A stretch of DNA of 64,000 nt from a virus. The position numbers were made by a program, and so were the translations under genes. The first letter of the stretch is position 1; every line of letters begins with the position of its first letter. Location of the stretch: positions 23,722 to 87,721 of the IMG/VR virus record IMGVR_UViG_3300025933_000001. One strand, 5' to 3'. Positions 12,111 through 61,172 of the stretch are shown here, one piece after another. Below the pieces are notes generated by a model, which saw only the letters and a list, made by a program, of their open reading frames with translations, made no database searches and was not told the origin of the DNA.

Positions 12111-12159
12111 AAAAAAGCCCTTGTGGTTAGCAAGGGCAATCTCTTGGGGGTGCAAGAGA
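12111..12159 (-). terminator. Leftward terminator, two hairpins
   Basis: Leftward: first hairpin TCTCTTG/CAAGAGA (12159-12140), then GCCCTTG/CAAGGGC (12137-12117) followed by six T. It closes the gene at 12162-12626, and the next promoter begins immediately after it. Confidence 0.8.
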
Positions 12160-12161
12160 AA

Positions 12162-12626
12162 TCAAAGACCAGCTTCAAGTAGTGCTTTTGCGATAGCTAC
12201 AGACAGTTTTTGCAGCTTTTCATCATCAATCTGCTTTCCTTCCTGTTGCATATCGACAGCTTCATTAAGCACATCTGCGACTTGTTGTTCGGCTTCTACG
12301 CGGCGTTTTGCAGCTTCAGAGCGAGCATTAGCACGTCCTTTCTTTTGATCATTGTCAACGGCTAGAATGTTTGGTACTTTGCGGTATGTACGCGGCAAGC
12401 GTTGTCTAATGTATACTTCTTGGCCTGTAGCTTCAGCAAACCGTTTTGCAAGTACTTTGCTATCAGCTTCAGACAATTGAGTTGTGTTCTTGTAATAGTC
12501 GAAACCCACATACTTGGGTTTTTCATCGCCCTCCTGCCATGCTTTCATCCTACCATTGTTGAGAGTATCAGCGATGAAAACTACAGGTTTGTTTTCGTGG
12601 TCAAGGCGGCAAAGAATTTGAGTCAT
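12162..12626 (-). CDS. Hypothetical protein, basic central region
   Basis: 154 residues. N-terminal beta-rich part, then a basic middle (KKGRANARSEAAKRRVEAEQ) and an Ala/Leu-rich helical C-terminus. Flanked by its own promoter (12702-12730) and terminator, so it is a single-gene unit. Possibly nucleic-acid-binding; no family recognised. Confidence 0.7.
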   Translation of the reverse strand: MTQILCRLDHENKPVVFIADTLNNGRMKAWQEGDEKPKYVGFDYYKNTTQLSEADSKVLAKRFAEATGQEVYIRQRLPRTYRKVPNILAVDNDQKKGRANARSEAAKRRVEAEQQVADVLNEAVDMQQEGKQIDDEKLQKLSVAIAKALLEAGL

Positions 12627-12701
12627 GTTAAAAGCTCCAGTAAGTTAGTAATAGATTGATTCGTTGCTTGCTTGTTAGAGTTGCGCTGAATCGATAACCG
12701 A

Positions 12702-12730
12702 ATAGTACATAGCGTTTTCTATTTATGCAA
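12702..12730 (-). promoter_or_regulatory. Leftward promoter
   Basis: Leftward TTGCAT (12730-12725), 17-base spacer, TACTAT (12707-12702), giving a leader of about 70 bases before the start at 12626. Confidence 0.55.
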
Positions 12731-12753
12731 GGGTTTTTAACTAAATAATTAAC

Positions 12754-25897: not shown

Positions 25898-26491
25898 ATG
25901 CCTACTTACATAAAAGAAGTACCAACAAAGGAGTGGTTGTTAGAACGTTTCTATGTTGAAGGTGGTTTCGTTTACTGGAAGCATAAGACGATTAGTAGAG
26001 GTCGGAAGAGTGAGAGGGGAGGTAAGCGTGTCAATACCTATATCGACGAATGTGGTTATTATAGAATTGGCATTGAACGTAAGACCTACCCTCTTAGTAG
26101 GATTATCTACCAAATGTATTACGGGGATTTAACACCAGAATATGAAGTAGATCATATAGACAGAGATAAGTTAAACAACCACATTACCAACTTACGTAAA
26201 GTGTTGCAGGAGGTTAATAAGAGGAATAAGACTAAGCAAAAGAACGCAGGCTCTGATAACACAGGAGTTTGTCTTAACCGTAAGCACCATCCTGCACCAC
26301 ACCAAGATAAGTACTCTGACTACTACGTAGCAAGATGGTATGATGCAGATGGTGTACTACGAGGTAAGCACTTTAGAATTGATAAACTTGGTGCTGAAGA
26401 AGCATATCGACAAGCTGTTGAATATCGAGCTAAAATGATCGAGCAATTGAATCAACAAGGTCTGAACTATTCAGATACACACGGAACTTAA
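25898..26491 (+). CDS. HNH endonuclease with AP2-like C-terminus
   Basis: 197 residues. The early segment LLERFYVEGGFVYWK is the usual first strand, then EVDHIDRDKLNNHITNLRKV is the HNH core (DH, N, N). The C-terminal half (GVCLNR...YVARWYDADGV...AYRQAVEYR) is an AP2-type DNA-binding domain. It sits between the primase-helicase and downstream genes, a common target for homing nucleases. No clear ribosome site. Confidence 0.85.
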   Translation: MPTYIKEVPTKEWLLERFYVEGGFVYWKHKTISRGRKSERGGKRVNTYIDECGYYRIGIERKTYPLSRIIYQMYYGDLTPEYEVDHIDRDKLNNHITNLRKVLQEVNKRNKTKQKNAGSDNTGVCLNRKHHPAPHQDKYSDYYVARWYDADGVLRGKHFRIDKLGAEEAYRQAVEYRAKMIEQLNQQGLNYSDTHGT

Positions 26492-43970: not shown

Positions 43971-45710
43971 ATGGATTCACTATACGAAAAACTAAGTAAA
44001 GAACGGAAAGAACTACAAGACGCAGGGCTTATGCAAGATTGGTGGTCTACCGGAGCATGGCAACTGTTTAAAGGTAAGTATTTATATAAAGCTGACAATC
44101 CCCGAGAACAGTACGAGCGTATTGCTAAAACTTTGGCACAATACATCAATGTTTACCCGGATTGGTGGGAGACTGAGTTTGCTTCTAAAATCACTGCTAA
44201 AGGAAAATACACTTGGGCAGATGCTTTCTTTGATCAAATGTGGATTGGCGATCTGTCTGGTTCTACACCTGTTGTTAGTAACACTGGTACTGATCGTGGA
44301 TTTTCTATCTCATGTTCAGGGAACGTGGTTCCTAACAGCATCGTAGGTATTTACGAAGCTAAGAAGGAAGTTGCTGTACTTACAAAGAATGGGTTTGGGA
44401 CAGCAAGCTACCTCGGAGACATTCAGCATCGTGGCACTGTAACAAACAAAGGTGTCGTAAGTACAGGTGTTGTTCCTGTAATCCAAGGGTTTGTACAGGA
44501 TACCGGATATGTAGCACAAGGTAGTAACAGGCGTGGTGCGTGGGCAGGTTATCTCCCTATAGAGCATGGTGACTTCTACGAAGTTGCCTCCTATGTAGAA
44601 GAGTTGCCAGATGGTGTTAACATTGGCTGGAATGTACCAAACAGTTTTATTGATAGATTGGATGCAGACGATCTTGAAGCACTTGACAGGTTTCAGACAG
44701 CTAAAACATTGAAAATGAAGACTGGTAAAGGGTACTATAGCTTCATTGATAAGATTAATGCGTTACGTCCTCAGATGTACAAAGACCTTGGGTTGGAAGT
44801 TGTTTCACAACAACTGTGTGCGGAAATTTGCCTACACAGTTCCCCTGATTTGACGTACACATGTGTTCTGTCTTCTATGAACTCTGCACGTTGGAATGAA
44901 TGGAAAGATACTAAGTCTGTGTTTATTGCTACCGTGTTCTTAGATTGTGTTGTAAGCGATTTCCTAGCTAAAGCTAAAGGTGTTGCAGGGATGGAAAAGG
45001 CTGTTAAGTTCACAGAGCTTGGCAGACCTCTTGGATTGGGTGTTTGTGGATTGCATACATTGTTTCAGAAGATGCGTATTCCTTTTGACAGCTTTGAAGC
45101 GCATATGCTGAATAATCAAATCTTCAAGCACATTCATGACCAATCTTTGGAAGCTTCTCAGTGGATGGCTAAGGCTCTTGGAGAACCTGAGTGGTGTAAG
45201 GGCTATGGTGTACGTAATACTCACAGGACTGCCGTAGCTCCAACTAAAAGTAGTGCTCTACTTATGGCTGGTGTGAGTGAAGGTATTAACCCTGATCCTG
45301 GTATGACATTTACACAGCTTACACCTGCAGGGGAGGTAGACCGTGCTAATCCTATCCTCTTAGCTATTATGAAGGAACGAGGTGTGTATGATAAGAAGCA
45401 TATGAAGGAGCTTACTGATGCTCAAGGAAGTGTACAGAATGTCGATTGGTTAACTGACCATGAAAAGCAAGTGTTTAAAACAGCTTTCGAGATTGATCAG
45501 AGAGCTATTATTCGTCTAGCTGCTGCACGACAGCGATATATTTGTCAAGGGCAGAGTCTTAATTTGTTCTTCAGTGCAGATGAAGAAGAGGAGTATATCG
45601 CAGAGGTTCATGCGGAAGCGTTTAGGAATCCTATGATTACAAGTTTGTACTATTGCTACAGCAAGGCTGGCGTTACAGCATCTAAAGGCGAATGTGGAGC
45701 ATGTCAATGA
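43971..45710 (+). CDS. nrdA: Ribonucleotide reductase large subunit
   Basis: 579 residues, shorter than the E. coli enzyme (761) because no N-terminal ATP cone is present, so dATP feedback inhibition is probably lost. FSISCSGN carries the redox Cys, LCAEICLHSS the radical Cys and Glu, and the C-terminal CGACQ the dithiol that reactivates the site. It converts NDPs to dNDPs for replication with NrdB. Confidence 0.88.
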   Translation: MDSLYEKLSKERKELQDAGLMQDWWSTGAWQLFKGKYLYKADNPREQYERIAKTLAQYINVYPDWWETEFASKITAKGKYTWADAFFDQMWIGDLSGSTPVVSNTGTDRGFSISCSGNVVPNSIVGIYEAKKEVAVLTKNGFGTASYLGDIQHRGTVTNKGVVSTGVVPVIQGFVQDTGYVAQGSNRRGAWAGYLPIEHGDFYEVASYVEELPDGVNIGWNVPNSFIDRLDADDLEALDRFQTAKTLKMKTGKGYYSFIDKINALRPQMYKDLGLEVVSQQLCAEICLHSSPDLTYTCVLSSMNSARWNEWKDTKSVFIATVFLDCVVSDFLAKAKGVAGMEKAVKFTELGRPLGLGVCGLHTLFQKMRIPFDSFEAHMLNNQIFKHIHDQSLEASQWMAKALGEPEWCKGYGVRNTHRTAVAPTKSSALLMAGVSEGINPDPGMTFTQLTPAGEVDRANPILLAIMKERGVYDKKHMKELTDAQGSVQNVDWLTDHEKQVFKTAFEIDQRAIIRLAAARQRYICQGQSLNLFFSADEEEEYIAEVHAEAFRNPMITSLYYCYSKAGVTASKGECGACQ

Positions 45711-47134: not shown

Positions 47135-47293
47135 ATAATAAAGACAGTGCTGTGGTGAACACTGAACGCAAGAGAGTGAAACACATCAGAGAGATTTCAG
47201 ATGCACCTCAATTAAACCACACATCTTGCAAACAATGCAACACCCTCGATCCTGCCCATCTCTTCTTTGAGGAGGTCGGCGGGATTTTTGTTC

Positions 47294-47671
47294 TCAGCCT
47301 TTGTAGATGTCTCCGTCAAATTTATTGTCAGGAGCTTCATTGACAGATGGCAATTGTTTTGTTGCTTTGGCATCTGTAGACTTTTGCATAGACTCGGCAG
47401 GCTTGACTGCTGGCAAAATTCCAGCTCTTTTGCTTGTAGTGTTGTGTACAACAAACTGGACAGCAGAAACAATCCCGAGAGCAATAGTTGTAGCTTCCTC
47501 GGTTGACAGTTGAACGTTAACAAGATTAAAATCTCCAGCCAATTTAACAAGGGCTACAAGGAATGGTACAAGTAATGTTGCAGCGTTTCCTCCATCTTTC
47601 CATTGTTCTGCGTTCGCAAGCTCATTGCCTTTGCGAAAGAGTGATAACATATCTAATAATCTATTCAACAT
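47294..47671 (-). CDS. Membrane protein next to endolysin
   Basis: 125 residues. ATLLVPFLVALVKLAGDF and TTIALGIVSAVQFVV are hydrophobic segments separated by a polar turn with STEEA. This pattern is found in holin-accessory or tail-lysis proteins next to endolysins. A second open frame overlaps it and runs past its stop, without a believable start. Confidence 0.55.
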   Translation of the reverse strand: MLNRLLDMLSLFRKGNELANAEQWKDGGNAATLLVPFLVALVKLAGDFNLVNVQLSTEEATTIALGIVSAVQFVVHNTTSKRAGILPAVKPAESMQKSTDAKATKQLPSVNEAPDNKFDGDIYKG

Positions 47672-48221
47672 TGTTGTTTTCCTTGTACAGTATTTTCTTT
47701 GCTAATTCGTAGTACTTCTGCCTATCTTCCCAACCGTTAGGTAGGCCAGTTGTTTTGTTTCTTCCATTAATTCGGATGCTTATCTTCAGGAAATCACCCT
47801 CGTCTGCAAGGGTGTTAAGTCCTTTTAGCTGCCAGAACCAAGCAGCACTTCTGCAAGCATTCTCAGGTTGTTCTAACAGTTCGGGGTGTTCTACACAATC
47901 CACACCTGAAGACATCATGAACGAGATGTAATTGAACTTACCTGTCAGTTGGATGAGTCCGCGCCCTTTGTACTTAAGGCCATCCCCTTGTTTCGTATTT
48001 CCAAGATCAAGACGCATCTCGTAAGCTCTACCAGATGCTATCTCCTTCACATATTTAAGCTCCCCACTCTCATGTGCTATTTGTGCTAAGAAAGCTGCTT
48101 GTCTAGCTGGAGTGTTGATGCTATATTCTTCCATTGCTTTGTTGAGATAAGGAAGAAAGATTTCTGCCCTAGAGCCAGCGTTGGGCATTATCTTCCTAAG
48201 CTGCTCTAAGGAAATGTCCAT
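47661..48221 (-). CDS. Endolysin, chitinase-type (GH19) muramidase
   Basis: 186 residues. A single GH19-like domain: FLAQIAHESGELKYVKE with the catalytic Glu51 and Glu60, then KYKGRGLIQLTGKFNY. Such enzymes cut peptidoglycan sugar chains. No signal peptide, so it depends on the holin for release. The start lies close after the holin gene. Confidence 0.88.
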   Translation of the reverse strand: MDISLEQLRKIMPNAGSRAEIFLPYLNKAMEEYSINTPARQAAFLAQIAHESGELKYVKEIASGRAYEMRLDLGNTKQGDGLKYKGRGLIQLTGKFNYISFMMSSGVDCVEHPELLEQPENACRSAAWFWQLKGLNTLADEGDFLKISIRINGRNKTTGLPNGWEDRQKYYELAKKILYKENNNVE

Positions 48222-48223
48222 GA

Positions 48224-48532
48224 TTAACTCAACCCCTTGAGAAACTTATCGAGAATCTTGCCAAACAAACTAATAGCTCTATCACTGAATCTCCCTGATA
48301 TGCCACCAAGAGCTACAGCCGCTAATTCTGGCAACCCTACAGCTTCACACAGCAAAAACACTATAATTGCTGCAAAAGCTGCTGTTACAATCTCGATAAG
48401 AAGATCAGTAAGTTTCCACTTCCTTCCTGTCTTCAGCTTATTCAAATACGACACAACTCCTCCAAATATAGCTAGCAACACTACACATAAATATGTAACC
48501 CATGTAAAATGTTCTGGATTCTTGTCCAGCAT
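48224..48532 (-). CDS. Holin, LydA-like
   Basis: 102 residues. Hydrophobic segments at about 12-28, 48-62 and 68-78, a basic patch KTGRKWK between them and the GGISGRFSDRA segment seen in LydA/phage holin family proteins. It would form the membrane lesion that frees the endolysin encoded directly downstream. Confidence 0.75.
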   Translation of the reverse strand: MLDKNPEHFTWVTYLCVVLLAIFGGVVSYLNKLKTGRKWKLTDLLIEIVTAAFAAIIVFLLCEAVGLPELAAVALGGISGRFSDRAISLFGKILDKFLKGLS

Positions 48533-48536: not shown

Positions 48537-49058
48537 TTATTCCTTTTTATTTGTTATGTATTGAAGCGAATAACCAAGCTCTAAAGCTTTCTGTACTACA
48601 CCGCTTGGCGTAACCTTACCCCCTAAATCTAGTCCTGATAACCTCCTCATAGCGATTGTAAACTCACTGCATTGCCAGAGATTGTCAGTACCAACTTCCA
48701 ACATATTAAGCTGACCCTCTATAGCCTGCAGTTTAGAATATTCTCCCACCCCCACCCATTTCAAGCCGTATTCCAACTCTGCATCAGTCATTGGCTTATC
48801 TGGAGTTTGAATAAGATAGAATCCTTCATCTGCTAGATTTGACAGAGGGAAGATTCTTACTTTCGGCTCTACTGATTCGATAACAAACACCCTACCAGCT
48901 ACAACCCAAGCTACACAGATGTGGCTATATTCAGATTCTGTAAACACTCTTACAGCCTGCACTTGTAAGTCATACAGGCTGCTCCAAGCCTTGTGTGTTA
49001 GAGCCACTAGATCACCAGACTTAATTTGACTCCTTGCTTCTACGTACGTAGTCATCAT
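48537..49058 (-). CDS. Permuted papain-like (NlpC/P60, YiiX-type) protein
   Basis: 173 residues. GDLVALTHKAW and YSHICVAWVVAGRVFVIE give the histidine-containing half, DNLWQCSEF the cysteine half, the order of circularly permuted NlpC/P60 enzymes. It may cut peptidoglycan stem peptides or act on fatty-acyl bonds. ATGA overlap with the protease gene upstream. Confidence 0.6.
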   Translation of the reverse strand: MMTTYVEARSQIKSGDLVALTHKAWSSLYDLQVQAVRVFTESEYSHICVAWVVAGRVFVIESVEPKVRIFPLSNLADEGFYLIQTPDKPMTDAELEYGLKWVGVGEYSKLQAIEGQLNMLEVGTDNLWQCSEFTIAMRRLSGLDLGGKVTPSGVVQKALELGYSLQYITNKKE

Positions 49059-50143
49059 TTTCTCTCAAAGTACTTACCTATCTTCTTAATTACTGTGACA
49101 GCTAGAATAAACAGTCCGAGCACTTTTACTCCACCTTCATCTTTCTTCTTTGGTTCTGGCTTTGGAGGATTTACAGGTGCTGGTGGAACAACCGGAGGAA
49201 CTATAGGTGGTGTAGGAATCGGCTGAACATTTGTGTCAGGAACTGGAGGCACAGGTGTAGGAATAGGATCAGATTTTATAGGAGTTGGCTTAGGTTGTGT
49301 TAAGTCTTTTCCTACACGTTCTATTCCATTGAATCCTTGGATGGCCCATAGATCAATTACATCTACTACAGCAACCCCTGCAAGACATAGGAAGAATCCA
49401 TTATCACCCCAATCCTTGCCCCAAGAGTTCTGAACAATCCAGCACAATCTTCCATACTTATCTTTCGTATATCCGACAATAAGCATTTCATGATTGCCCC
49501 AATAAGGGTTAGTTGTTGGGTTGACAAATGTGTAAACCTCGTCTTTAGGTAGGTCACGAAGTTTTTCACCAATCCTTAGTCCTAACGCAACGGGCCATCC
49601 TTTAGCAAGAGCGTATTTAATCCTGTAGATCACTTCCTCAGTGCTTGAGAATCTTCCATCAATCTCTTTTAGAGCAATACGAGAATACTTGTCTATCTTA
49701 AAGTTTTTAGCATCATCATAAGCCTCTTGAGGAGGCTCATCGTTTACTTTAGAGAGAATATATGGATAAACTTTCTCTCGTGCTACACCAAAGGTTTTAG
49801 CAGCTTTAAGAGCCATTCTCGCTGTGCTACCACCATCTACCAAAGGGGTGTTAGGGGATAGCAGCTTTCTAGATGTAGCATAGTTAAATAGGATTGATAA
49901 ATCCTTATCATCTACAGCGTCGGTGTCTTGGAATAAGCCTGCTGAAATTAAGAACATCTCGCAAGCTTTAACTCCAATACTGGCTGCTGTGCAAGAACCT
50001 AGAGAAAGTTGATCTTCCCTGATTCCTGCATACTCACGCATATCAACTTCTTCTGGTAGAATGCTATCCTCTGTCTCCAAGATAAAGTCTCTTGGGTCTT
50101 GAGGATCAGGTTGTAGTTTAGCTAGGTAGATGTTCTTATCCAT
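49055..50143 (-). CDS. Papain-like C1 protease with Pro-rich stalk and membrane anchor
   Basis: 362 residues from ATG 50143 (AAAAGGAA). DQLSLGSCTAAS contains the oxyanion Gln45 and catalytic Cys51; GNHEMLIVGY the His (near 217) and IVQNSWGKDWGDNG the Asn (near 237). A proline-rich stalk (about 265-320) follows, then a C-terminal hydrophobic helix (VLGLFILAVTVI). An unusual combination: a thiol protease held at a membrane, placed between tail fibre and lysis genes. It might cleave host envelope proteins, process tail proteins or aid lysis. Confidence 0.8.
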   Translation of the reverse strand: MDKNIYLAKLQPDPQDPRDFILETEDSILPEEVDMREYAGIREDQLSLGSCTAASIGVKACEMFLISAGLFQDTDAVDDKDLSILFNYATSRKLLSPNTPLVDGGSTARMALKAAKTFGVAREKVYPYILSKVNDEPPQEAYDDAKNFKIDKYSRIALKEIDGRFSSTEEVIYRIKYALAKGWPVALGLRIGEKLRDLPKDEVYTFVNPTTNPYWGNHEMLIVGYTKDKYGRLCWIVQNSWGKDWGDNGFFLCLAGVAVVDVIDLWAIQGFNGIERVGKDLTQPKPTPIKSDPIPTPVPPVPDTNVQPIPTPPIVPPVVPPAPVNPPKPEPKKKDEGGVKVLGLFILAVTVIKKIGKYFERK

Positions 50144-50162
50144 TATTATTCCTTTTAATTTA

Positions 50163-50615
50163 TTACAGATTGTTTGCTTGTACGAACAACAACCTAATAT
50201 CTTCATCGGACAAGCCTAGAGCTGCTCCAATAGTTTTTATAAGAGGCTCATCACGTTGGAAGGTGAGAGATTCTTTCCAGTAGATTTCAGCAGTGCGTCT
50301 CTGTACCTCATCAGGAATAGCAGCAATAACTTGGGGGACTAAATCGATAAGACGTGCCCCGTCTTTCTCGTTTAGCATGAGAGCTAACATTGCCTGCCTA
50401 CGAGTGACAAACTCTGGGTAATCAGGTATTGCGTCGCCCGGAGTATCGTCCTCTTCTGAGGGAGGAACCCAACCTTCTGGTACTTCAAATATTTGAGACT
50501 GACCTATTACGTCGAATTGCATTTCAAGATTGCCGTCTATAAGGTAGCGATCAGATAGCACCTCTACTGTTTGGAATGGCCCAAACGTATCGTGTAAAGT
50601 TCCTATTACTTTCAT
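50163..50615 (-). CDS. Tail fibre-associated protein
   Basis: 150 residues from ATG 50615 (GGAGG). The N-terminal half is beta-rich; the C-terminal half (FVTRRQAMLALMLNE...) is helical and recalls phage tail-fibre accessory proteins, such as the C-terminus of short assembly factors. Overlaps the fibre gene by ATGA. Confidence 0.55.
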   Translation of the reverse strand: MKVIGTLHDTFGPFQTVEVLSDRYLIDGNLEMQFDVIGQSQIFEVPEGWVPPSEEDDTPGDAIPDYPEFVTRRQAMLALMLNEKDGARLIDLVPQVIAAIPDEVQRRTAEIYWKESLTFQRDEPLIKTIGAALGLSDEDIRLLFVQANNL

Positions 50616-52660
50616 GCTGCTGCCTCCACTCTGCAAAGGGTAATACCTGTAGAACTACTGACGGTGTTTATTAACCATGTTTCATTGCTTGCACCGGATG
50701 CACCAGAACTTCCGTTAGCCGCTATAAATGGTGGAACATGCATTGTAGATATGCTTGCTGAGTTAGCAACAAGACTCTCCACTTGCCCAACTGTGGTTGA
50801 TGTACCTACGGTGTATAACGTATTACCTCCGATTATGTTTTGATATGACCTGACATTCCATAAATCAGGTACGCTTGCTGGAACAATGGACGATGCCATT
50901 GACTGCACCAGAGAAGTCAGTGAAGGTGATGTACCGGAAGAATCAATGTTAATAACAACACCAACAGTGCTGGCAGCAAGAAAGAAAGTACATATTGAAC
51001 CGGATAATCCTATTGCAGAAATTCCCGCTCCCGCGGACACGTTATTCTTAACCGCTTGTGTTAACTCTGTCCCTGCAGAGGCTGTACCAGATGTATCTAT
51101 CAGGTGATTTATACCTACAGTAGAACTACCACCTGTGTACACTACACAAAGCTTTGTATTACTAACTGCAATAGTATCGAACGTACTAACAGCATTGGCT
51201 GGAGTTACAGCACTGCTTAACGTAGCTACGCTAATTGCTGCTACAGTACCTGACACAGATACAATTGCACCTTTAAACGAGGTGTTCAAGTGAAATACAG
51301 CGATGTTCCCAGACCCCATTGCTTGGGATCGGTAATTACTTGCTGATGTAGATGTAGTCGCTTCCGTTCCAGCAGACAGGGTTGATCCACTAACTGTCCA
51401 AGGCTTGGCATACAAAGTGGATGAAGTTAACTCGATTGCAAGGACAACACTAGAACTCATTGTGTAAATCGTAGGCGAAGAGTTTACACCACTAGCACTT
51501 GTAGCAGATTGTTCAGAACCGATAGTAGGTGTAGTCCCGGAGATACTAATTGCTCTAATGGCAGATGTTGTTGTATCCCTACCATAAGCCACTACAAACG
51601 AGCTACCTACTGCTTTCAGTTGTCCCATCCCTGCAAAGTTGCCAGCCAGTGTTGCAGTACCCTTAGTACCACTGTTTACAGTAATACCTGTAGTGGCATC
51701 AATTGACAACGTAACTGCTTCCATTGCAGTTGTTGAGTTGAACGACACCACCAACACCTGATTTGTTGCTGACAATATGGCTGCAAAAGGTGTACCAGTG
51801 GTAATACCTGTACGGACTGTTGCAACACTGCCCCACGATGCCGTACTTGCATCGAACACCACTGCATAAAGATTAGTGCTACTGAATACCAAGCATGTAC
51901 GATTAGAGTCAATTACCACACGCTTAATAGCAGTACTTGTATTAGTAACAGAGGTATTTACAAGCTGTGCAGTAATACCAACCTTCTCCAAGTTACTAAT
52001 AATCCAAGTACCTGCAGCAGTGCTCTTACCTGATAAGCTAACTACAGCAACCTTTCCGGGCCTAATCCAACCAAGTTGTGTGCCTGATGCATTCTTGATA
52101 CCGTAATCGTAATTACCTGCATTGTGAACCACAAACAAACCTGCACCAAGATCGCAGGTGGTAGCATCAGGTAGAGTTACATACCAACCGGGAGCAGAAG
52201 GGGTGACTGTTTGTGCACCAGCACTTGATGCAACAAGGGTGAGATTACCTGTCGCAGAGGTGCTACCATTGTCCCCTCTGTTGGGGACAGGATAACCCCA
52301 TGTTGTATTATCTAGCGAAGGATCAGTAGTGCTTACACCGGCAACTTTACAACGATATGTCTTGAAGTTGATCGGACTGTAAACGCAAGTTCCTAATGTG
52401 TAGTTTGTACCAGATACCCAAGCACTAGCGCCTGACCCTGAAGCAGCAGCCGCAGCACTAGCAGCAGCAGCAGAAGCTGATGCAGCAGCGTTTGTAGCTG
52501 CAGTTGACGCTGTAGTTTGTTTTGTGCTAACATCTGCAGCAAGAGCATTTGCTTCAGTAACGAACGTAGGCAAAGCAGCTACAAAAGCATCTGCTGTAGT
52601 TGCAAATGCTGCTGGAGTTTGTGACCGTTGTGGTGCTGACGGTAGAGTTGTAATTGTCAT
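50612..52660 (-). CDS. Tail fibre protein
   Basis: 682 residues. An Ala/Ser-rich trimerising helix (about 45-75) precedes a small carbohydrate-binding-like module (WVSGTNYTLGTCVYSPINFK), then a long Thr/Ser/Gly-rich beta region typical of receptor-binding fibres. Confidence 0.7.
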   Translation of the reverse strand: MTITTLPSAPQRSQTPAAFATTADAFVAALPTFVTEANALAADVSTKQTTASTAATNAAASASAAAASAAAAASGSGASAWVSGTNYTLGTCVYSPINFKTYRCKVAGVSTTDPSLDNTTWGYPVPNRGDNGSTSATGNLTLVASSAGAQTVTPSAPGWYVTLPDATTCDLGAGLFVVHNAGNYDYGIKNASGTQLGWIRPGKVAVVSLSGKSTAAGTWIISNLEKVGITAQLVNTSVTNTSTAIKRVVIDSNRTCLVFSSTNLYAVVFDASTASWGSVATVRTGITTGTPFAAILSATNQVLVVSFNSTTAMEAVTLSIDATTGITVNSGTKGTATLAGNFAGMGQLKAVGSSFVVAYGRDTTTSAIRAISISGTTPTIGSEQSATSASGVNSSPTIYTMSSSVVLAIELTSSTLYAKPWTVSGSTLSAGTEATTSTSASNYRSQAMGSGNIAVFHLNTSFKGAIVSVSGTVAAISVATLSSAVTPANAVSTFDTIAVSNTKLCVVYTGGSSTVGINHLIDTSGTASAGTELTQAVKNNVSAGAGISAIGLSGSICTFFLAASTVGVVINIDSSGTSPSLTSLVQSMASSIVPASVPDLWNVRSYQNIIGGNTLYTVGTSTTVGQVESLVANSASISTMHVPPFIAANGSSGASGASNETWLINTVSSSTGITLCRVEAAA

Positions 52661-52669: not shown

Positions 52670-54502
52670 TTAAACCAATCCTTCTAAATCTAACGAACAC
52701 ACTGAGAGGCCATCCATGTATCCAATATCTATGTCAAAATTCTTATAGAAGCCGTAGACAATTGTCGGCTCGAAGCCATCTCCAACTTCTCCTATATACA
52801 CAACAGGGGTTGCGCGGTAGGAAGCAAGCATGTTTGCTAAGAAAGCTACTGTGGTTGTTTCACAATAGATTGTGAAACTGGCTCTCTTTGCATAAGCACG
52901 TTCTGTGATCGTGAAGTTACCGAAGTTATCTCTAGTCTTAACAGAATAGTCTTGAATACCTATCTTGGCATTTACTTGTGTAGCTCCAATATCTCTTGAC
53001 AAACCTGCTGTAGCAACACCACACAATGCCGTACCACCTGTGTTGTAGACGATGATATTGATTGTAGCGTTAGCGTAGAGAGGTAATCCTGTTACAGCAA
53101 AGTCAGTCTTATAAATGATTGTCTCAAAAAAGTATGAGTACCAATCAGAAACACCATCGTTGTTAATCCCATCTAACAACTGGTCGTAAACAACACCATC
53201 TGTAGCGTCACGAATGAGAATCCTCGCTCCTTGACCTTGAATGTTTAACAGCGTTACAGTGTCGATGGCAGAGCTTAACTTAATAGCTACCATTACTGCA
53301 TCAGCGTTGGAAGTTTGAGATTGAACACTTGTGTCAAACATCTTCCAACGATTCGTATTGCCGTAATCAAGCCAGTAAGTAGGGTTATCTGCAGGAGTTT
53401 TGTTAAGATTGGGGCCAGCTACAGCAGTATGAACACCGGATTGAGTCCCAGATGTGTTGATTGCTCCTGAACCATCCGCTATACTGGAGATACAAAACGA
53501 GTTAGTAAACAGGTTAGTTGTTGACACATAGTATGTAGTCCCTGCTGTAATACCTGTAGGTAGAGCACCTGTCGTACTAAACTGAATAGGTGTTCCGGCA
53601 GAGAATCCGTGTGCTGTCCAGCTTACTACCCCCGGAGATGCAATAGATATTGTTACTGTTGAACTATGACCTTGTAAGGATTGATAAATTTTATGAGTAC
53701 CACTCCCCGGACTACCAACCACCATAACAAAATCACCAGTGTTGTATACTCTTGTGCTGCTATATGCTGTATAGTCATTCTCAGCTACGTTACTAATCAT
53801 TCCAGAAGTATTCACATCAGCAGCACGAGTAGCACTGCTAGAAGTAGTGGTGATATAACTTGTAGCTGCACTACCAGTTTCGAGTTGCATTCCCCAAGCA
53901 TAAAACGAGCCTGATGAGGTTCCATCATTATTACGGATAGAGATTGTAGCTGTCGTACTGGTAGAGGTGAAAGCTAGATATAATCTATACCAACCTAGCG
54001 TTCCTATTTGCTCAATTGTTGCGGTACCTGACCCACTAGTAATAGTAGCTGTCTCTGTAGATAAATCATAATCTGCTTGTACACCACTCACAGTATCTAA
54101 TACTCTTATTTTAGAAGAAGCATTAGCTTTTGCATATAAAGAATCTATGTAAGCAACACCATTACTTACTGTTACAGACTGTGAAATACCCCCTGTTGCT
54201 GCACTGACTGTAATCATATCAGCAGTTGCATTACCATCTGGTGCAGTAGTAGCATTAGCTGTAACACTACAATTTGTTTTAGTCCATGCTGCGTTATCGG
54301 CTTGTTCGCTGTACAATAACAAGTTTGTAGCAGCAGATTCTTCAAGTAATCCTATGGGAATCAATGTTGTAGGGTCGTAACTAAATCTAGGAGTGTCTGT
54401 TGTAGCAGTTTGTAATACTCCAGATTTATCGTAATATTTAGCAGAGCTTGCTCTTGTGAAAGAGCCTGCGTCTGATACTGTAAGTGGTCTAATGATCTTC
54501 AA
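52670..54502 (-). CDS. Virion protein with lectin-like domain (tail tip/fibre)
   Basis: 610 residues; TTG start at 54502, chosen because AGAGGTG precedes it. The first 230 residues (FTRASSAKYYDKSGV, GLLEESAATNLLLYSE) match the head-binding or concanavalin-like modules of phage tail proteins. The middle resembles a CBM-like repeat, and the C-terminal 100 residues form a further beta domain. Follows the tape measure, as fibres usually do. Confidence 0.7.
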   Translation of the reverse strand: MKIIRPLTVSDAGSFTRASSAKYYDKSGVLQTATTDTPRFSYDPTTLIPIGLLEESAATNLLLYSEQADNAAWTKTNCSVTANATTAPDGNATADMITVSAATGGISQSVTVSNGVAYIDSLYAKANASSKIRVLDTVSGVQADYDLSTETATITSGSGTATIEQIGTLGWYRLYLAFTSTSTTATISIRNNDGTSSGSFYAWGMQLETGSAATSYITTTSSSATRAADVNTSGMISNVAENDYTAYSSTRVYNTGDFVMVVGSPGSGTHKIYQSLQGHSSTVTISIASPGVVSWTAHGFSAGTPIQFSTTGALPTGITAGTTYYVSTTNLFTNSFCISSIADGSGAINTSGTQSGVHTAVAGPNLNKTPADNPTYWLDYGNTNRWKMFDTSVQSQTSNADAVMVAIKLSSAIDTVTLLNIQGQGARILIRDATDGVVYDQLLDGINNDGVSDWYSYFFETIIYKTDFAVTGLPLYANATINIIVYNTGGTALCGVATAGLSRDIGATQVNAKIGIQDYSVKTRDNFGNFTITERAYAKRASFTIYCETTTVAFLANMLASYRATPVVYIGEVGDGFEPTIVYGFYKNFDIDIGYMDGLSVCSLDLEGLV

Positions 54503-54529
54503 TAGTATCACCTCTTTCAAAAGAAAATA

Positions 54530-54557: not shown

Positions 54558-57500
54558 TTACGCATCTACATCTCTAGTTTCAGGCATACCATCAGTATCA
54601 AACTTCTTCAGATACTTAACGATTTCCTTAGTTTGTTGGACATTAGCCACATCACCAGAAATAATGCACTGTTTTAACTCGGCAATTGCTGCTACAACAT
54701 CCGCATGACTTTGCTGAGTTTCAGAGTTCTTAAGCCTACGCATCAACTCAGCATTATCAGCGGCAGGTATGATTCGCTCACCTTCATGAATCTGCGCTAC
54801 CATATCGTGAGGAACATAGTCAGTACCGACATCGAAAGAAGGTAGTTTATTCTTGTACTCATCAGAATTCATGAACGCAGATTTAATGGAATCTAGAGAT
54901 TCCCCTGCATCAAGTTTTCTAGTCCAGAAGTCTACACCAGCAGCTTCACCAACTCTGCCTAAAATAGAAGAGTACAACTGTTGCACTTTAGCTTCATTGG
55001 AGTTTTGGATAGCATCTACTACAGAAGCTACAGACGCGCCTGCTGCAACCTTATCTTTCCAATGCTCTAATCCAGCATCTTCTGCATTGCGGTGCAGGGA
55101 GTCTTGGTAAGCTTTAGAGATAGCTCCTGTGGAAGAAGCATAAGCATTTCCGTTAACATTCCCAACAGCCAAGTTAAAGTTTTGCAAAGCAGCTTCGACA
55201 GATTTTACAGAGCTATCGACACCTTTTATGGCATCAATCTGCTCTTGAGCCTTGCTAACAATACCATCAAGTCGTCCAAGTTCTGCATCTCTTGTAGATT
55301 CTAAGGCTGCTACTTGTGTGTCAGATGTAGTATTTATACTATCAATTGTAGCATTAATAGCATCTATTGTCAATTGAGCAGCATCTTTCTGTCCACCTGC
55401 AGCAGTTGTTAACCCCCCTATCAAGTTGGCTGTTCTGGCCTGATCTGCTGCGTACTCTTGGAATGTAGAGAACATCTGTTCAGCAGGTTTAGCTATTACT
55501 TGTAGAGCGTCATCTAGACCTTGGAACTTCGTCAGATCGCCACCAGAGCCAGCAAATCTCATAGCAGAATCCAAAGTACCTTGAGCTTCCCTTCTACGAG
55601 CAGCCGTAAGAGCAGCAGATTCCACTTGCGTAGACTTCATAGCGTTCTTCAGAGAATCGAAGATTGAGCTAATGGCCTTCTGAGATTCTGTAGCAGCGTC
55701 TAAGGCTTTCTTCTGCAATGCAACATCAGCTTGAGCTTTATCTTTCACTGCTTTGATCTGTGCTTCGTAAGAATCCGTTACCGTCTTCTTCTGGGCTTCT
55801 ACAGACCTCTGCAAGCCTTCAAACGATGAATCGAGTTCACTTACTAAGAAAGTCTCCGCACTTTGCGCTAAAGCCTTTGTAGCAGACTCTGCGGACTCTG
55901 TTACATCAGCAAATGCACTTGACAAACTCAACAACTTACCAACTAGCTTTTCACCCTCGTCACTGCCATCATCCATGCGTTGAACAAGAGCTTTAAACTC
56001 GTCTCTTGTTTTCGGCATAGTTAGGTTCATAGCGTCGAACTCTCTGCTAAGGATTTTGGTCTGTGCTGCAGCTTTCTCTGAATCTGTGTAGAACTTATCA
56101 AAGAACGTTTCAACACCGGACTTGAGAGAATCTAAACCACCAGCACCACGAATAGTAGAACGACTTAACGCACCACCATTCAACCCTGCGGAGTTCATCA
56201 GATCACGAATACTTACCAGTTGCTTGTACGTGTCTATGAGGTCTTGAGCACTTCCGTCCATCGTCGAGATGATGTCAGCAATACCGTTAGAAACATTAAC
56301 CGTCGCATTGTTGAAGTCAGCACCTGTCAGGTTGCTTACCATCTTCATGATTTGCTTATCAGCATCATTTGCAGCACGAGTGTAAGTCTCATGAGCCACA
56401 ATACTGTCACGGATAATCTCAGTCTCTACATCTCCTTGCTTGTTAGCGATACCTGTGTAGTTCACAGCAGTGATGTTCAGCTTTTCAAGAGCATACTGTG
56501 CAGTGTCCACACCGTTAGCTACACGAATAAGCGTCTGGAATGCACCTTCACCAACCTTAGAGAATTGTGCGATGCTAGGCATTGCTGCCTCTGCCATCTT
56601 ATCCCCGAGTGCTCCAAATACAGATTCTAGTTGCTTCTGCACTTCTTCCCCGGATAACCCTTTCAGGCTTACTTTGAATATGCCTGCCTGATCTAGATTA
56701 ACTGCCCTCACAGCATCCTTAATCACACTGCTGTTCTCGCCTAAAGCTGATGCGGATGTGAGAATACTCTGATACGTGTTAGAGATAGTCTTTACAAACT
56801 GATCTCTTAGCTCAGGTGGTAAGTCAGTGAGAATTTGCTGATTAGAAGAACTCTTTGACAATCCAAAGAATGAAGATTTCTCACTATGTACATCAGAGTA
56901 ACCTCTTGCAAAGATATTGTTAGTATCCAGAATCCTACCGATTGTTTGTGGAGTCCAAACAGCAGTTTCCCAATGTTCCAGCGCATCCTTCAGAGGGCTT
57001 ACCAGTTCTCTTTCAAACACGATACCCGAGTCAACCAGCTCTTTAGACGATGAACTAAATCCGAGGAATGACTTAGAGCTTCCTACACCAAGAGCACGTT
57101 GATCTGCATCTGTACCACGTAACATTGAAGTACGAGAGATAGCAGCAGACATGCCAGCAATACCGTCGTTAATACTCTTCAGGTAGTTCACCATGCTTGA
57201 TGTGTAGCTCAGAGCAATGTCAGAGTTAGATTTCAAGAGTTCTAGAGACTTAGTGATAGATTCTGACTTCTTATCTTCTGCTCCGAGGACAGTGCCTGTG
57301 CCTTGAGTTGCTTGTCGTTGTTTTGCAATATCGACAGAAGCTCCGCCACCTCCTCTACCACCAACCATCAACCCTAAGCCTGCCATAATAGCTGCCATTG
57401 CAGCCATACGGAAGAATGCAGAGTAAGGATCACCGTTGGCTTGGTTAGACACGCCAGATACAGCATTAGCTTGAGCTACAGCCATCTTTGCGCCAACTTC

Positions 57501-60500
57501 AGTACCAGCAGATGTAACAGCACTGGTAGCTTGCTCTGTATTACCTGAGACAACCGCTGCAGTTGTTGCTTGAGTGAAGAACATCTTCTTCATGAATAGC
57601 TCAATCTCTCCAGCCAACTGCATAGCACGAAAACCTTGCTCAACTGCTTGCAATACTTGATAGCCTTTGGACTTCTCGTTAAAGAAGTTTTTAGCTGCGC
57701 CAGCCATGTTTGCATACGAAGATAGTTCAGCTTTCTCGCCATCCTTGATTGCTTTCATGTTCACAGCATCAATCTTTGCCTGATCTTTTCCAGCAAGGAT
57801 TAGCCCTGCTTTACGAGCATTTTCAATCTTCTCTTGTGTTGCTTGTTGCTTCACAAATGCAGAAGTAAGCTTACCAACAGCACCTACTGCAGTACCGAAT
57901 GAGGACTCTAAACTAGAAGCAAAATCGTCAGCACCTTTAGCAGCGTCATCCCACATAGTGTCGAATGACAAAGCTGTCTGTTGTACTTGACCTTTAATCT
58001 TCTCTGCTTGAGCAATTAGTTGCTCATTACCAGAAGATTTAGCAGTTGCCATCAACTTATCAGACATTTCTTGCAAAGCAGGAAGTGCATTAGCACGGAT
58101 ACTGTTAGCAAGGCCAGCAGCATTGAACTTAGATTCCCAATCTCCACCAGCTTTAGCAGCAAGATTGATTGTGTTGATGGAATTCTCCATCTCCCTGAAT
58201 TCTGCTTTAAACTTAAAAGAGCCTGTATTAAACAGAGCAACATCTTCCTTAGCTTTAGATTCAGCAGTGAATGCATCACGAGCAGCTTTAAGGGAGTTTA
58301 GTTTTTGAGTAAGTGTTTCAAACGCATTGCCACCATCTGTACCCATATTATTGAAAGCATTAGTCACCTTCTGCTCAGTTGTAGAAATGTCGCTGTCAAG
58401 ATTGCCTAAACTGACTTTCTCTAGCTGACCAAATTTTAGGGCATTAGCTTTAACAAACTCTCCACGAGCTTCCAACTCTTTGACAAGATGTTCTGTAGTA
58501 AACTTCTCGACCTCAGCGAAACGGATAGACTCTTGTTCTTTCATACGCAGTGCTTCGTCACTAGCACTTCTTTGAGCATCTTTTAGTTTATTACCTATCG
58601 ATGCTTTTACAGTTTCCTTGTTCTTAGGGGCAGCAACATCGATCATATTCTGGTAAGCTTGTGCCTCCTTCCGATACATGGCAATTGCAGCCTCACCATT
58701 TCGTTGAATTTGCTCAAGTCTACCAATCTGACCAGTTTTAAATAAAGCATCGTTCTTAGATTCAACATTCTTCAGTTCATGTTTTGCTTCATTCACCTGA
58801 TCTTGAATACGTTTCAACTCAGCTTCATACAAATCATTAGCTCTTGCAGCAGCACCTGGATTATTTCCAAGCTGTGAAAGAACTCCTGTGCCTGCTGCCA
58901 CCTTAGAATTGTCCCTAGCTTGTTTTTCAGAAAGATCGGCAAGCTCTTTAGCTTTCTTACGGACAGCTTCAGCTTTCTTCTCTGCTTCTCCGTAGGCTTT
59001 AGTAGAATCATTCTGAGCTTGTACTAAATCACGCTCTGCCTTCAACACAGCATTAACGTTACTGAGTAGTTGAATACTAGGAGCACCAATCTGATGAGCA
59101 CGATCTAATGAACGTAGCTCAGATGGAGAAAGCTCTGCTTTTAACTTATCAAGGTCTTTTTGCTTCTGTGATACATATTCTGCACCTTGAGCTTTAATCA
59201 TCTCTAATTGTCTTGCTCTCAGAGACTCAGTGTAAGCATCACTAGCATTCTTACCCTTCTTCATCAACTCGATCTGTTTATCGAGACGAGTTGCCTCTTC
59301 GTCCAAAGATTTTGTAAAATCATTGATATAGTTCAAAGAGGCTTGTGCTTCTGCAGACTTACCAATCTCAGATTTCTTAGTCATGAAGTATGTAACTGCT
59401 GCACCAACGGCTAATAGAGCTGCACCTAACAAACCTAAAGACGCTTGAAAGCTGATAGCAGAAATCTTAGCCACGTCAAAAGCGGTTTTAAGAGCTACTA
59501 ACCCTTCGCCAATCCCAACAATCAATCCAGCAACAAAAGATACCGTCTTAAATGTCAAAAACACTTGGACAAGAGTGGTAATAGTATCAATGTTCTTCGT
59601 AACCCATACAGCCATTTCCGCTAAAGCCATTGATATGCTCTGTACTCCAGAAATAAACTCAGGAGAGTTGAACGTTGCTTTCATATGCGTAGCAATCATT
59701 GACAGTTTGGGTGCAATGCCGTCAAATGATTGCATCAATGACGTCTTTAAGGTATTGCTAACACTCTTAAATTGGTTTTCAACAGTAAGTGCCATTGCCG
59801 CAGCACCTATTGCCGTCATACCTGCAGATTCTGCAATCTTGGATTGTAGGTCTTCAAATTCCGAAGCTGCTTCACCTGACTTTTGCCTGTACATGTCAAG
59901 CAATTCGACAAGTGTCTTTAGACCACGCTCATTCGCTAGTCTGTTAAGAGCTACTTTCTGTTCACTGGCAGTTAACTTACTCAAGCCGTCTGACAAGATC
60001 GGGAGGATTTCCGATAGCGACTTAAAGTTACCTTCTTTATCTTTCAAATCCTCGTTAACTGTAATACCAACATCTTTGAAGGTTTGAGTTACCTTTTTCC
60101 CTTCCGAAGCTAGCTCTTTATAAAAGTTCTTCAGTGATGTACCTGCAGCAGAGCCTTGAATACCTAAATTGGACAGAGCTGCGAAAGCAACACCAATATC
60201 TGTCAGTGTCACCCCATACAATTTACCTACTACAGAGCCTGATTTAAATGCTTCAGAAATGCTTTCAACAGATGACATAGAAGCTGCTGCTGTTGCTGCA
60301 ATAGTATCTGCAACATGGTCAAATCCGTTAGCTGTCATACCTAAAGATGTGGACACCTGCACCAAAGTGTACGCAGATTTCTCAATTGTTGTACCACCTA
60401 CAGTGGCCAAATTAAGTGCAGCATGAATACCTATTAAAGATTCTTCAGCACTCTTACCAGCTAAAATGAGCGTTTCAAAAGCTTTTGCAACTTCTTGAGG

Positions 60501-61172
60501 ACCGTAAATACCTTTACCAAGTTCAGTGATAGCCAGCCTCATCTGATTCACACTCTCGATAGATTCGTTACCTTTAACACGAATACTCTCCAAAGTGTGT
60601 TCAACATCTTTACCGACCGATACAATTTGTTTAAAACCTGTGCCTATAGCTAAACCTGCCGCCAATGGGATCATGCTTCCGTAAGTGACCCATAGAGCAC
60701 CTAAAGAGCCAGACAAGCCACGAGCTGCAGCATGTGCATCTTGCATTGCACCTGTATGAGACATAATAGCTTGTGCGCTCTTTCTGGCAGCATTAGCTGA
60801 TTGGTCATAAGCAGCATTCATCTTCAAAGCTTCAGCGTGAGCATCTGCATACGCCTTAGCACGAAGATTAAACATTTCAATATCTCTCTTCTGCTCAACA
60901 GAAAGCTGAGACAATGCCTTAGTAGTAGCATTCGTGCTATCATTTACACGGATACTAATGTTTGTCATTGTGCTCATGGCAGACGAGAAAGCTTGAGCAA
61001 CGACAAGGTTTTGTTGAAATACGTTGGAAAGCTTCTCAATAGAAGCAGTTAAAGAAGTGGCCCTTCTCTCTGCTTTTTCAGCAGTTTGAGAGAATCTGTT
61101 GAGGCCATCGTTAGCCTCTCTAATACCTGTAGAACGTACTTCTACGCCAAGCGTCGCTATATCTAAACTCAT
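54558..61172 (-). CDS. Tail tape measure protein
   Basis: 2,204 residues, the longest gene in the window. Long coiled-coil stretches and hydrophobic central segments (about 535-605 and 1290-1340) are typical. The C-terminus carries DUF4214-like repeats (AYQDSLHRNAEDAGLEHW and LYSSILGRVGEAAGVDFW). At roughly 0.15 nm per residue, a rule of thumb for siphoviruses, the tail would be near 330 nm. It follows the chaperone genes, as expected. Confidence 0.93.
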   Translation of the reverse strand: MSLDIATLGVEVRSTGIREANDGLNRFSQTAEKAERRATSLTASIEKLSNVFQQNLVVAQAFSSAMSTMTNISIRVNDSTNATTKALSQLSVEQKRDIEMFNLRAKAYADAHAEALKMNAAYDQSANAARKSAQAIMSHTGAMQDAHAAARGLSGSLGALWVTYGSMIPLAAGLAIGTGFKQIVSVGKDVEHTLESIRVKGNESIESVNQMRLAITELGKGIYGPQEVAKAFETLILAGKSAEESLIGIHAALNLATVGGTTIEKSAYTLVQVSTSLGMTANGFDHVADTIAATAAASMSSVESISEAFKSGSVVGKLYGVTLTDIGVAFAALSNLGIQGSAAGTSLKNFYKELASEGKKVTQTFKDVGITVNEDLKDKEGNFKSLSEILPILSDGLSKLTASEQKVALNRLANERGLKTLVELLDMYRQKSGEAASEFEDLQSKIAESAGMTAIGAAAMALTVENQFKSVSNTLKTSLMQSFDGIAPKLSMIATHMKATFNSPEFISGVQSISMALAEMAVWVTKNIDTITTLVQVFLTFKTVSFVAGLIVGIGEGLVALKTAFDVAKISAISFQASLGLLGAALLAVGAAVTYFMTKKSEIGKSAEAQASLNYINDFTKSLDEEATRLDKQIELMKKGKNASDAYTESLRARQLEMIKAQGAEYVSQKQKDLDKLKAELSPSELRSLDRAHQIGAPSIQLLSNVNAVLKAERDLVQAQNDSTKAYGEAEKKAEAVRKKAKELADLSEKQARDNSKVAAGTGVLSQLGNNPGAAARANDLYEAELKRIQDQVNEAKHELKNVESKNDALFKTGQIGRLEQIQRNGEAAIAMYRKEAQAYQNMIDVAAPKNKETVKASIGNKLKDAQRSASDEALRMKEQESIRFAEVEKFTTEHLVKELEARGEFVKANALKFGQLEKVSLGNLDSDISTTEQKVTNAFNNMGTDGGNAFETLTQKLNSLKAARDAFTAESKAKEDVALFNTGSFKFKAEFREMENSINTINLAAKAGGDWESKFNAAGLANSIRANALPALQEMSDKLMATAKSSGNEQLIAQAEKIKGQVQQTALSFDTMWDDAAKGADDFASSLESSFGTAVGAVGKLTSAFVKQQATQEKIENARKAGLILAGKDQAKIDAVNMKAIKDGEKAELSSYANMAGAAKNFFNEKSKGYQVLQAVEQGFRAMQLAGEIELFMKKMFFTQATTAAVVSGNTEQATSAVTSAGTEVGAKMAVAQANAVSGVSNQANGDPYSAFFRMAAMAAIMAGLGLMVGGRGGGGASVDIAKQRQATQGTGTVLGAEDKKSESITKSLELLKSNSDIALSYTSSMVNYLKSINDGIAGMSAAISRTSMLRGTDADQRALGVGSSKSFLGFSSSSKELVDSGIVFERELVSPLKDALEHWETAVWTPQTIGRILDTNNIFARGYSDVHSEKSSFFGLSKSSSNQQILTDLPPELRDQFVKTISNTYQSILTSASALGENSSVIKDAVRAVNLDQAGIFKVSLKGLSGEEVQKQLESVFGALGDKMAEAAMPSIAQFSKVGEGAFQTLIRVANGVDTAQYALEKLNITAVNYTGIANKQGDVETEIIRDSIVAHETYTRAANDADKQIMKMVSNLTGADFNNATVNVSNGIADIISTMDGSAQDLIDTYKQLVSIRDLMNSAGLNGGALSRSTIRGAGGLDSLKSGVETFFDKFYTDSEKAAAQTKILSREFDAMNLTMPKTRDEFKALVQRMDDGSDEGEKLVGKLLSLSSAFADVTESAESATKALAQSAETFLVSELDSSFEGLQRSVEAQKKTVTDSYEAQIKAVKDKAQADVALQKKALDAATESQKAISSIFDSLKNAMKSTQVESAALTAARRREAQGTLDSAMRFAGSGGDLTKFQGLDDALQVIAKPAEQMFSTFQEYAADQARTANLIGGLTTAAGGQKDAAQLTIDAINATIDSINTTSDTQVAALESTRDAELGRLDGIVSKAQEQIDAIKGVDSSVKSVEAALQNFNLAVGNVNGNAYASSTGAISKAYQDSLHRNAEDAGLEHWKDKVAAGASVASVVDAIQNSNEAKVQQLYSSILGRVGEAAGVDFWTRKLDAGESLDSIKSAFMNSDEYKNKLPSFDVGTDYVPHDMVAQIHEGERIIPAADNAELMRRLKNSETQQSHADVVAAIAELKQCIISGDVANVQQTKEIVKYLKKFDTDGMPETRDVDA

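What the first reader, a model, noticed from the sequence alone, without database searches (positions are those of the whole stretch)
49055..50143. Membrane-anchored papain-like protease between fibres and lysis genes
Complete Gln/Cys/His/Asn set of C1 peptidases, then a proline stalk and a single C-terminal helix. The layout suggests a protease displayed from a membrane or virion tip. Cysteine proteases of this kind are rare in tailed phages of Gram-negative hosts.
Basis: partly seen in the sequence, partly recalled or inferred. Interest (0 to 1): 0.6.

Follow-up and report, generated by a model that had tools for sequence, protein, structure and literature searches.

The report
Phage papain-like protease with membrane tail
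A bacterial virus carries a divergent papain-type protein-cutting enzyme, tethered by a proline-rich stalk to a membrane-seeking helix, next to the genes that burst the host cell; such enzymes turn out to be common in environmental phages, but this tethered form is unusual and its job is still untested.

Summary
The gene is on the minus strand (50143 to 49055, 362 aa). Residues 12-274 are a genuine papain-family (C1A) domain: Pfam E=5e-16, predicted fold closest to xylellain (Z 29.3), Gln45/Cys51/His218/Asn239 invariant in 49 aligned relatives. A 61-residue stalk with 22 prolines and a C-terminal helix (338-361) follow. "Rare in tailed phages" does not hold: at least 252 viral contigs encode relatives, and xylellain-type C1A in Caudoviricetes is published (PMC10380794). 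Unusual is the stalk plus hydrophobic, cationic helix, approached by only one unrelated viral contig among the 80 viral and 80 cellular relatives surveyed. The gene overlaps by 4 bp a YiiX-like gene, then holin and GH19 endolysin. It is absent from an otherwise syntenic phage, so it is an accessory insertion. Relatives sit in tail-fibre clusters (some fused to collagen or LamG modules) or, less often, lysis cassettes (one fused to peptidoglycan-hydrolase/binding domains). I favour a late, membrane-associating envelope protease of the lysis module, with moderate confidence; virion display is the main rival. The boldest open reading is help with outer-membrane disruption in a phage with no detectable o-spanin in its lysis region.

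The parts
49055..50143 (-). C1A (papain-family, xylellain-type) peptidase gene, 362 aa (P0003)
49322..50110 (-). catalytic domain, residues 12-274, with Gln45, Cys51, His218, Asn239
   Evidence: Residue boundaries from the fold alignment and invariant columns
49133..49315 (-). proline-rich stalk, residues 277-337, 22 Pro in 61 residues, predicted disordered
49061..49132 (-). C-terminal helix, residues 338-361: hydrophobic first half, amphipathic cationic second half
   Evidence: AlphaFold2 helix; hydropathy and hydrophobic moment
50150..50156 (-). Shine-Dalgarno-like run (AAAAGGA) ahead of the ATG at 50143
   Evidence: read directly
48537..49058 (-). YiiX/C92-like (permuted papain fold) gene, start overlapping the C1A stop by 4 bp
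   Evidence: NF007458 1.5e-7, below its curated cut-off; phrog_1128 1e-7; conserved in L007 at 58%; AlphaFold2 model too poor to use
48224..48532 (-). LydA-type holin (PF16083)
   Evidence: 1.7e-18; PHROG holin families
47661..48221 (-). GH19-type endolysin
   Evidence: PF00182 3.2e-6; phrog_181 endolysin 1.2e-63
47294..47671 (-). 125-aa hydrophobic protein of the lysis region, conserved in L007
   Evidence: 31% identity; no PHROG or Pfam match
47212..47550 (-). nested ORF homologous to an o-spanin-like nested ORF of L007, lipobox missing here
50163..50618 (-). gene between the fibre-like genes and the C1A gene (fibre-assembly-like position); left flank of the insertion
   Evidence: phrog_6034 7e-16, unknown function; homologue in L007
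50612..52660 (-). 682-aa repetitive late protein beside the tail genes, fibre-like by position
   Evidence: 45% identical to the L007 syntenic protein; no family match
52670..54505 (-). tail/spike-fibre protein
   Evidence: NF048003 GTA_spike_fiber 6e-40; phrog_5939 tail protein

Best explanation
This is a divergent xylellain-type C1A cysteine peptidase acquired as an accessory gene at the fibre/lysis boundary of a tailed phage. SHOWN by computation: papain fold, full catalytic set, proline stalk, helical C-terminus, no N-terminal signal, 4-bp gene overlap with the lysis-side genes, and absence from a syntenic relative. INFERRED: it is made late with the lysis genes. The cationic C-terminal helix docks it on a membrane, most simply on the cytoplasmic face of the inner membrane. 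The roughly 60-residue proline stalk gives the enzyme reach (about 18-19 nm if fully extended as polyproline II, close to periplasm width; recalled geometry). Once the holin opens the inner membrane and the endolysin cuts the wall, the protease attacks envelope or peptidoglycan-bound proteins and so helps the final envelope break-up. Substrate, topology and timing are untested.
For: Identity. Late-strand position with a 4-bp overlap to the YiiX-like gene, then holin and endolysin. Tail helix. A similar proline linker plus amphipathic C-terminal helix in the unrelated contig L058, where the C1A gene follows two small membrane-protein genes. C1A in or beside lysis genes elsewhere: one ORF in phage MMB025 with Rv2525c glycoside-hydrolase-like and PG_binding_1 domains; directly after a GH25 endolysin in THSA-485A; beside a GH108-like endolysin and an Rz-like spanin in L040, beside an SLT-like transglycosylase and an Rz-like spanin in L055, near an Rz-like gene in L066 (which locus carries the GH108 and the SLT match was read from the sequences). 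Small membrane proteins are enriched next to viral C1A genes: 21 of 286 neighbours within two genes against 24 of 819 farther away, one-sided Fisher p=0.0017 (crude hydropathy criterion).
Against: No signal peptide and a short hydrophobic core, so membrane insertion and periplasmic access are unproven. Lysis enzymes are a minority context: four lysis-enzyme Pfam matches (Phage_lysozyme, Amidase_2, SLT, GH108) among 140 neighbours scanned from 53 non-fibre loci (only 25 of 39 matched families are shown). A larger group (23 of 76 non-redundant viral loci) has the T4-like fibre neighbourhood. The gene's own upstream side is fibre-like genes. L007 does without it, so it is dispensable.
Confidence: 0.4

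Rival explanations
1. Virion protease: the enzyme is carried on the tail tip or fibres, the proline stalk is a spacer and the C-terminal helix docks it to the virion or inserts in the host outer membrane; it clips surface proteins or biofilm during adsorption.
For: Fibre-like genes lie directly upstream. In other phages C1A is fused to collagen repeats plus a fibre-type C-terminus (L041) or to a LamG domain (L036). Fibre/LamG-type proteins neighbour C1A in 17 of 82 loci, 16 entries at the -1 position, with T4-like baseplate families among the neighbours. These fibre-cluster C1As form a viral group in the tree.
Against: No fibre or virion-binding module in the window protein; it lies outside the fibre-cluster group on a long branch; a hydrophobic C-terminal helix is not a known virion docking module (recalled); the gene overlap is with the lysis side.
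Confidence: 0.27
2. Host-takeover or counter-defence protease tethered on the cytoplasmic face of the inner membrane, cleaving a host membrane or defence protein.
For: No signal peptide, so a C-tail anchor would leave the enzyme in the cytoplasm. Patchy distribution and absence from L007 fit accessory cargo. In many loci the neighbours are ordinary metabolic genes.
Against: Position in the late strand beside lysis genes rather than among early genes; a long rigid stalk is not needed for cytoplasmic targets.
Confidence: 0.2
3. Soluble enzyme with a membrane-active cationic tail, like endolysins that permeabilise the outer membrane with a C-terminal amphipathic helix; the tail's membrane activity, not tethering, is what matters.
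For: The last 18-residue windows are amphipathic (moment 0.58) and end in a lysine/arginine-rich stretch, with the same moment in L058. Kongari et al. (PMC6139136, section 15 read whole) describe such tails in membrane-active endolysins as a possible route in phages without spanins.
Against: The first half of the helix is fully hydrophobic, more anchor-like than a soluble amphipathic tail.
Confidence: 0.13

Closest known systems
Xylellain (Xylella fastidiosa C1A peptidase, PDB 3ois)
   Same: Same fold over residues 3-273 (Z 29.3, rmsd 2.6, 244 aligned, 30% identity); same catalytic set
   Different: Window protein adds an 86-residue C-terminal tail (proline stalk plus helix) and is very divergent (terminal branch 2.07 against a median of 0.25)
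Xylellain-type C1A peptidases of Myo- and Siphoviridae reported by Kordis and Turk 2023 (PMC10380794; passages read)
   Same: Short bacterial-type C1A peptidase carried by a tailed phage
   Different: The passages read name no stalked or membrane-tailed form and no lysis context
Papain-endolysin fusion ORF of Alicyclobacillus phage MMB025 (PV686781.1)
   Same: C1A domain in a lysis gene; a phrog_1128 (YiiX-like) gene lies 1.2 kb upstream
   Different: One multidomain ORF with glycoside-hydrolase-like and peptidoglycan-binding domains; Gram-positive host
Collagen- and LamG-linked C1A proteins of T4-like environmental phages (L041, L036)
   Same: C1A domain tethered through a spacer in the fibre region
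   Different: Tethered to fibre modules rather than to a hydrophobic helix
Two-component spanins (Rz/Rz1; PMC6139136)
   Same: Lysis-cassette proteins with a membrane anchor and, in Rz1, a proline-rich region
   Different: Spanins have an N-terminal membrane segment or lipobox and are not enzymes; P0003 has neither and is an enzyme by all sequence criteria

Membership tests
Peptidase family C1, subfamily C1A (papain) | Profile match over the curated cut-off | tested here: met
   PF00112 59.8 bits against 20.7
Peptidase family C1, subfamily C1A (papain) | Gln, Cys, His, Asn in order and conserved | tested here: met
   Q45, C51, H218, N239 invariant in 49 sequences; positions checked
Peptidase family C1, subfamily C1A (papain) | Papain fold | tested here: met
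   Foldseek E 1.1e-15 and VIA Z 29.3 to 3ois; model pLDDT over 90 in much of the domain
Peptidase family C1, subfamily C1A (papain) | Peptidase activity, E-64 sensitivity | not testable with these tools
   Needs expression and assay
Xylellain-type group | Closest solved structure is xylellain | tested here: met
   Rank 1 by Foldseek and by VIA, 4.3 Z units above the next entry
Xylellain-type group | Nested with them in a tree | tested here: inconclusive
   Long-branch row, placement unsure; xylellain itself was not in the tree
Phage endolysin | Recognised peptidoglycan-hydrolase or wall-binding domain | tested here: not met
   Only C1/peptidase families matched in P0003
Spanin (i-, o- or u-spanin) | N-terminal membrane segment or lipobox | tested here: not met
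   Neither in P0003 started at 50143; the lipobox scan reports none for this gene
PEP-CTERM or LPXTG-type sorted proteins (considered for the C-terminus) | Match to a curated sorting-signal model | tested here: not met
   No NCBIfam match at all up to E=1 for P0003
Peptidase C92 (YaeF/YiiX) for the neighbour 48537-49058 | Profile match over the curated cut-off | tested here: not met
   NF007458 31.1 bits against 216; no Pfam match at E 0.01; so 'YiiX-like', not filed as C92

The most novel reading that the evidence does not exclude
The stalked, membrane-tailed C1A protease performs or replaces the outer-membrane disruption step of lysis: a proteolytic alternative to spanins. By my scan the window phage has no lipoprotein-signal ORF in any frame in its lysis region, and its nested o-spanin-like ORF lacks the lipobox, whereas the syntenic phage L007, which lacks C1A, keeps an o-spanin-like lipoprotein and a weakly Rz-like gene there. 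Against it as a general rule: L040 and L055 carry C1A together with Rz-like and lipobox genes, and the window phage does carry one large lipoprotein-like gene elsewhere (16717-18816).
Probability: 0.12. Interest if true: 0.8.

Novelty: new variant of a known kind. Interest (0 to 1): 0.42.

Why it matters
The spread of papain-type proteases through tailed phages is noted in print, but I found no described role for them. This case offers a tractable form: one gene, full catalytic set, an evident tether, a syntenic phage that lacks it, and a lysis cassette without a detectable o-spanin. How phages without spanins break the outer membrane is an open question (about 13% of genomes in PMC6139136), and this gene can be tested in a standard lambda-lysis assay.

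Tried and rejected
C1A-C92 pairing as a rule: suggested by the window and L003, but PF05708 was found in only 1 of 77 records (1 of 40, 0 of 37; the 77 include L007, which has no C1A). The looser phrog_1128 was found in 7 of 50, which include the window's own record and L007's; of these only the window, G022 (L032) and MMB025 have it within about 2 kb of C1A, with L003 adjacent by Pfam. Kept as suggestive only.

C1A as a general spanin replacement: rejected, because L040 and L055 have both.

A close family of the window protein: a single-protein scan found only a 99.87%-identical contig (L002, the same phage population; 15 differences in 11,756 bases, one in this gene) and a 30% relative. A PEP-CTERM or LPXTG reading of the tail: no NCBIfam match. 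Structure of the neighbour P0004: mean pLDDT 42.7, unusable. PHROG scan of ten small membrane neighbours: two gave Rz-like matches, most nothing. Paper searches for a phage C1A function found only the gene-transfer statement of PMC10380794; this covers the held open-access library alone. Papers: PMC10380794, PMC10318531, PMC7824862, PMC12090721 and PMC9862828 were seen as passages, PMC6139136 as passages plus section 15 whole; all others only as search listings. The lipobox scan used a home-made criterion; five mononucleotide shuffles of the window gave 0 hits, weak antisense hits do occur in real sequence, and a looser pattern listed six window ORFs from 45.7 kb on, one of them antisense to the endolysin (47755-47931, +), which I did not count.

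Full report
CHECK OF THE OBSERVATION. The stretch 49055-50143 encodes a 362-aa protein on the minus strand. The start at 50143 is preceded by AAAAGG; an upstream in-frame start at 50206 would overlap the previous gene and is unlikely. The catalytic domain matches Pfam PF00112 at 5.4e-16 and solved C1 peptidases by sequence, best dipeptidyl peptidase I 2.1e-12 and xylellain 3.1e-9. Gln45, Cys51, His218 and Asn239 are present and invariant across 49 sequences. An AlphaFold2 model built on 48 viral relatives (mean pLDDT 79.3, much of the domain over 90) matches xylellain 3ois first by Foldseek (E 1.1e-15) and by VIA-align (Z 29.3, rmsd 2.6, 244 residues, 30% identity; the next entry Z 25.0). The tail is as described: residues 277-337 with 22 prolines, predicted disordered, then a helix 338-361. 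The hydrophobic core of the helix is short (19-residue mean hydropathy 1.72) and its last part is amphipathic and cationic (moment 0.58), so 'membrane-associating' is safer than 'transmembrane'. There is no N-terminal signal. The gene's G+C content (41.4%) is like that of the window (40.7%).

SURROUNDINGS. The window is G000:C1:23722-87721 of an 87,721-base virus record. On the minus strand, in order, lie a tape-measure protein, a spike-fibre/tail protein, a 682-aa fibre-like protein, a 151-aa gene, the C1A gene, a YiiX-like gene overlapping its stop by 4 bp, a LydA-type holin, a GH19 endolysin and a small hydrophobic protein. A second contig (L002) is 99.87% identical over 11,756 bases, with an identical protein.

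INSERTION. The phage contig L007 is syntenic on both sides: the tape measure 41%, spike-fibre 50%, fibre-like 45%, 151-aa gene 29%, YiiX-like 58% and small hydrophobic protein 31% identical. It has no C1A gene: the 151-aa homologue is followed after 8 bases by the YiiX-like homologue. Holin and endolysin also differ between the two. The C1A gene is therefore an accessory insertion (or was lost in L007) in a mosaic lysis region.

RELATIVES. Annotated phages have fewer: 2 records with the window protein as query, 19 and 20 with two other members, among them Burkholderia phage FLC9, Lak phages, THSA-485A and MMB025. In a tree of 161 sequences, viral and cellular members need 12 changes of label (53.8 in shuffles): clustered, yet interleaved, which fits repeated exchange. 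The window protein is a long branch (2.07) with no safe position. Kordis and Turk (PMC10380794, passages read) already state that xylellain-type C1A peptidases were acquired by Myo- and Siphoviridae.

ARCHITECTURE. Of the C1A ORFs in these viral and cellular loci (171 ORFs examined, duplicates included), the proline stalk with a strongly hydrophobic C-terminal helix occurs only in the window and its duplicate loci. L058, an unrelated contig with the C1A gene between two small membrane-protein genes and terminase-like genes (the latter by eye), has a shorter proline-rich linker and an amphipathic cationic C-terminal helix (moment 0.58). Other tethers exist: collagen repeats with a fibre-type C-terminus (L041), an N-terminal LamG domain (L036), a Thr-rich tail (L079), a 126-aa extension (L016 group).

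CONTEXT OF RELATIVES. Two contexts recur. (a) Fibre clusters: fibre/LamG-type proteins neighbour C1A in 17 of 82 loci; 23 of 76 non-redundant viral loci share this T4-like neighbourhood; PHROG and Pfam hits of 104 immediate neighbours include LamG (11), baseplate wedge and tail-fibre families. (b) Lysis genes: MMB025 has C1A, a Rv2525c glycoside-hydrolase-like domain and PG_binding_1 in one ORF; THSA-485A has C1A directly after a GH25 endolysin; MW202426 has a peptidase about 1.1 kb before tail-collar, XhlA and endolysin genes; L040, L055 and L066 have Rz-like spanins next to C1A and, in the first two, a GH108-like endolysin or SLT-like transglycosylase. Among 140 neighbours of 53 non-fibre loci, four lysis-enzyme Pfam matches were seen in the 25 of 39 families shown, alongside ordinary metabolic genes, so lysis is a minority context. 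Small membrane proteins are enriched near C1A (21 of 286 against 24 of 819, p=0.0017), but the criterion also catches signal peptides.

SPANIN TEST. A scan of all frames for lipoprotein signals found none in the lysis region of the window; in the 64-kb window it found one, at 16717-18816, in a 699-aa ORF; two weak ones lie in the remaining part of the record. L007 has a lipobox (LTGC) in a nested ORF at the syntenic place and a weakly Rz-like gene. The window's nested ORF (47212-47550) is homologous (30%) but has no lipobox. This either/or pattern rests on a single pair, and L040 and L055 have C1A together with Rz-like and lipobox genes, so it is a lead, not a finding. Kongari et al. (PMC6139136, section 15 read whole) describe about 13% of the phages they examined as spanin-less, mention cationic amphipathic C-terminal helices as a possible alternative route, and note that proteins with other anchors could act.

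MECHANISM AND VERDICT. The best-supported reading is a late, membrane-associating C1A protease of the lysis side that attacks envelope proteins after holin and endolysin action; virion display is the main rival because of the fusions seen elsewhere; cytoplasmic-face host takeover cannot be excluded, since the protein has no export signal. Identity is near certain; the mechanism is inference at about 0.4. The kind (phage-borne xylellain-type C1A) is known; the stalked, membrane-tailed form in a lysis region is a new variant.

Noticed in passing
window 47212-47550 (-): Nested ORF in another frame of 47294-47671, homologous to the o-spanin-like nested ORF of L007 (9659-10027) but without its lipobox.
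   Followed up: partly
window 16717-18816 (+): 699-aa ORF with a lipoprotein signal (LAGC) among the plus-strand genes; no PHROG match.
   Followed up: no
L003 2691-9292: One viral locus carries a caspase-like C14 gene, a C1A gene and a C92 gene, with the last two adjacent.
   Followed up: no
L007 12147-15019: Two separate ORFs match the window's ribonucleotide reductase (43971-45710), and a further ORF beside them (12147-12734) is homologous to window 25898-26491; possibly a homing-endonuclease insertion.
   Followed up: no
window 54558-61172 (-): The tape-measure protein ends with repeats that look like DUF4214 by eye (recalled, not tested).
   Followed up: no
L065 4732-5034: A small membrane protein with its own proline-rich tail directly follows a C1A gene.
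   Followed up: no
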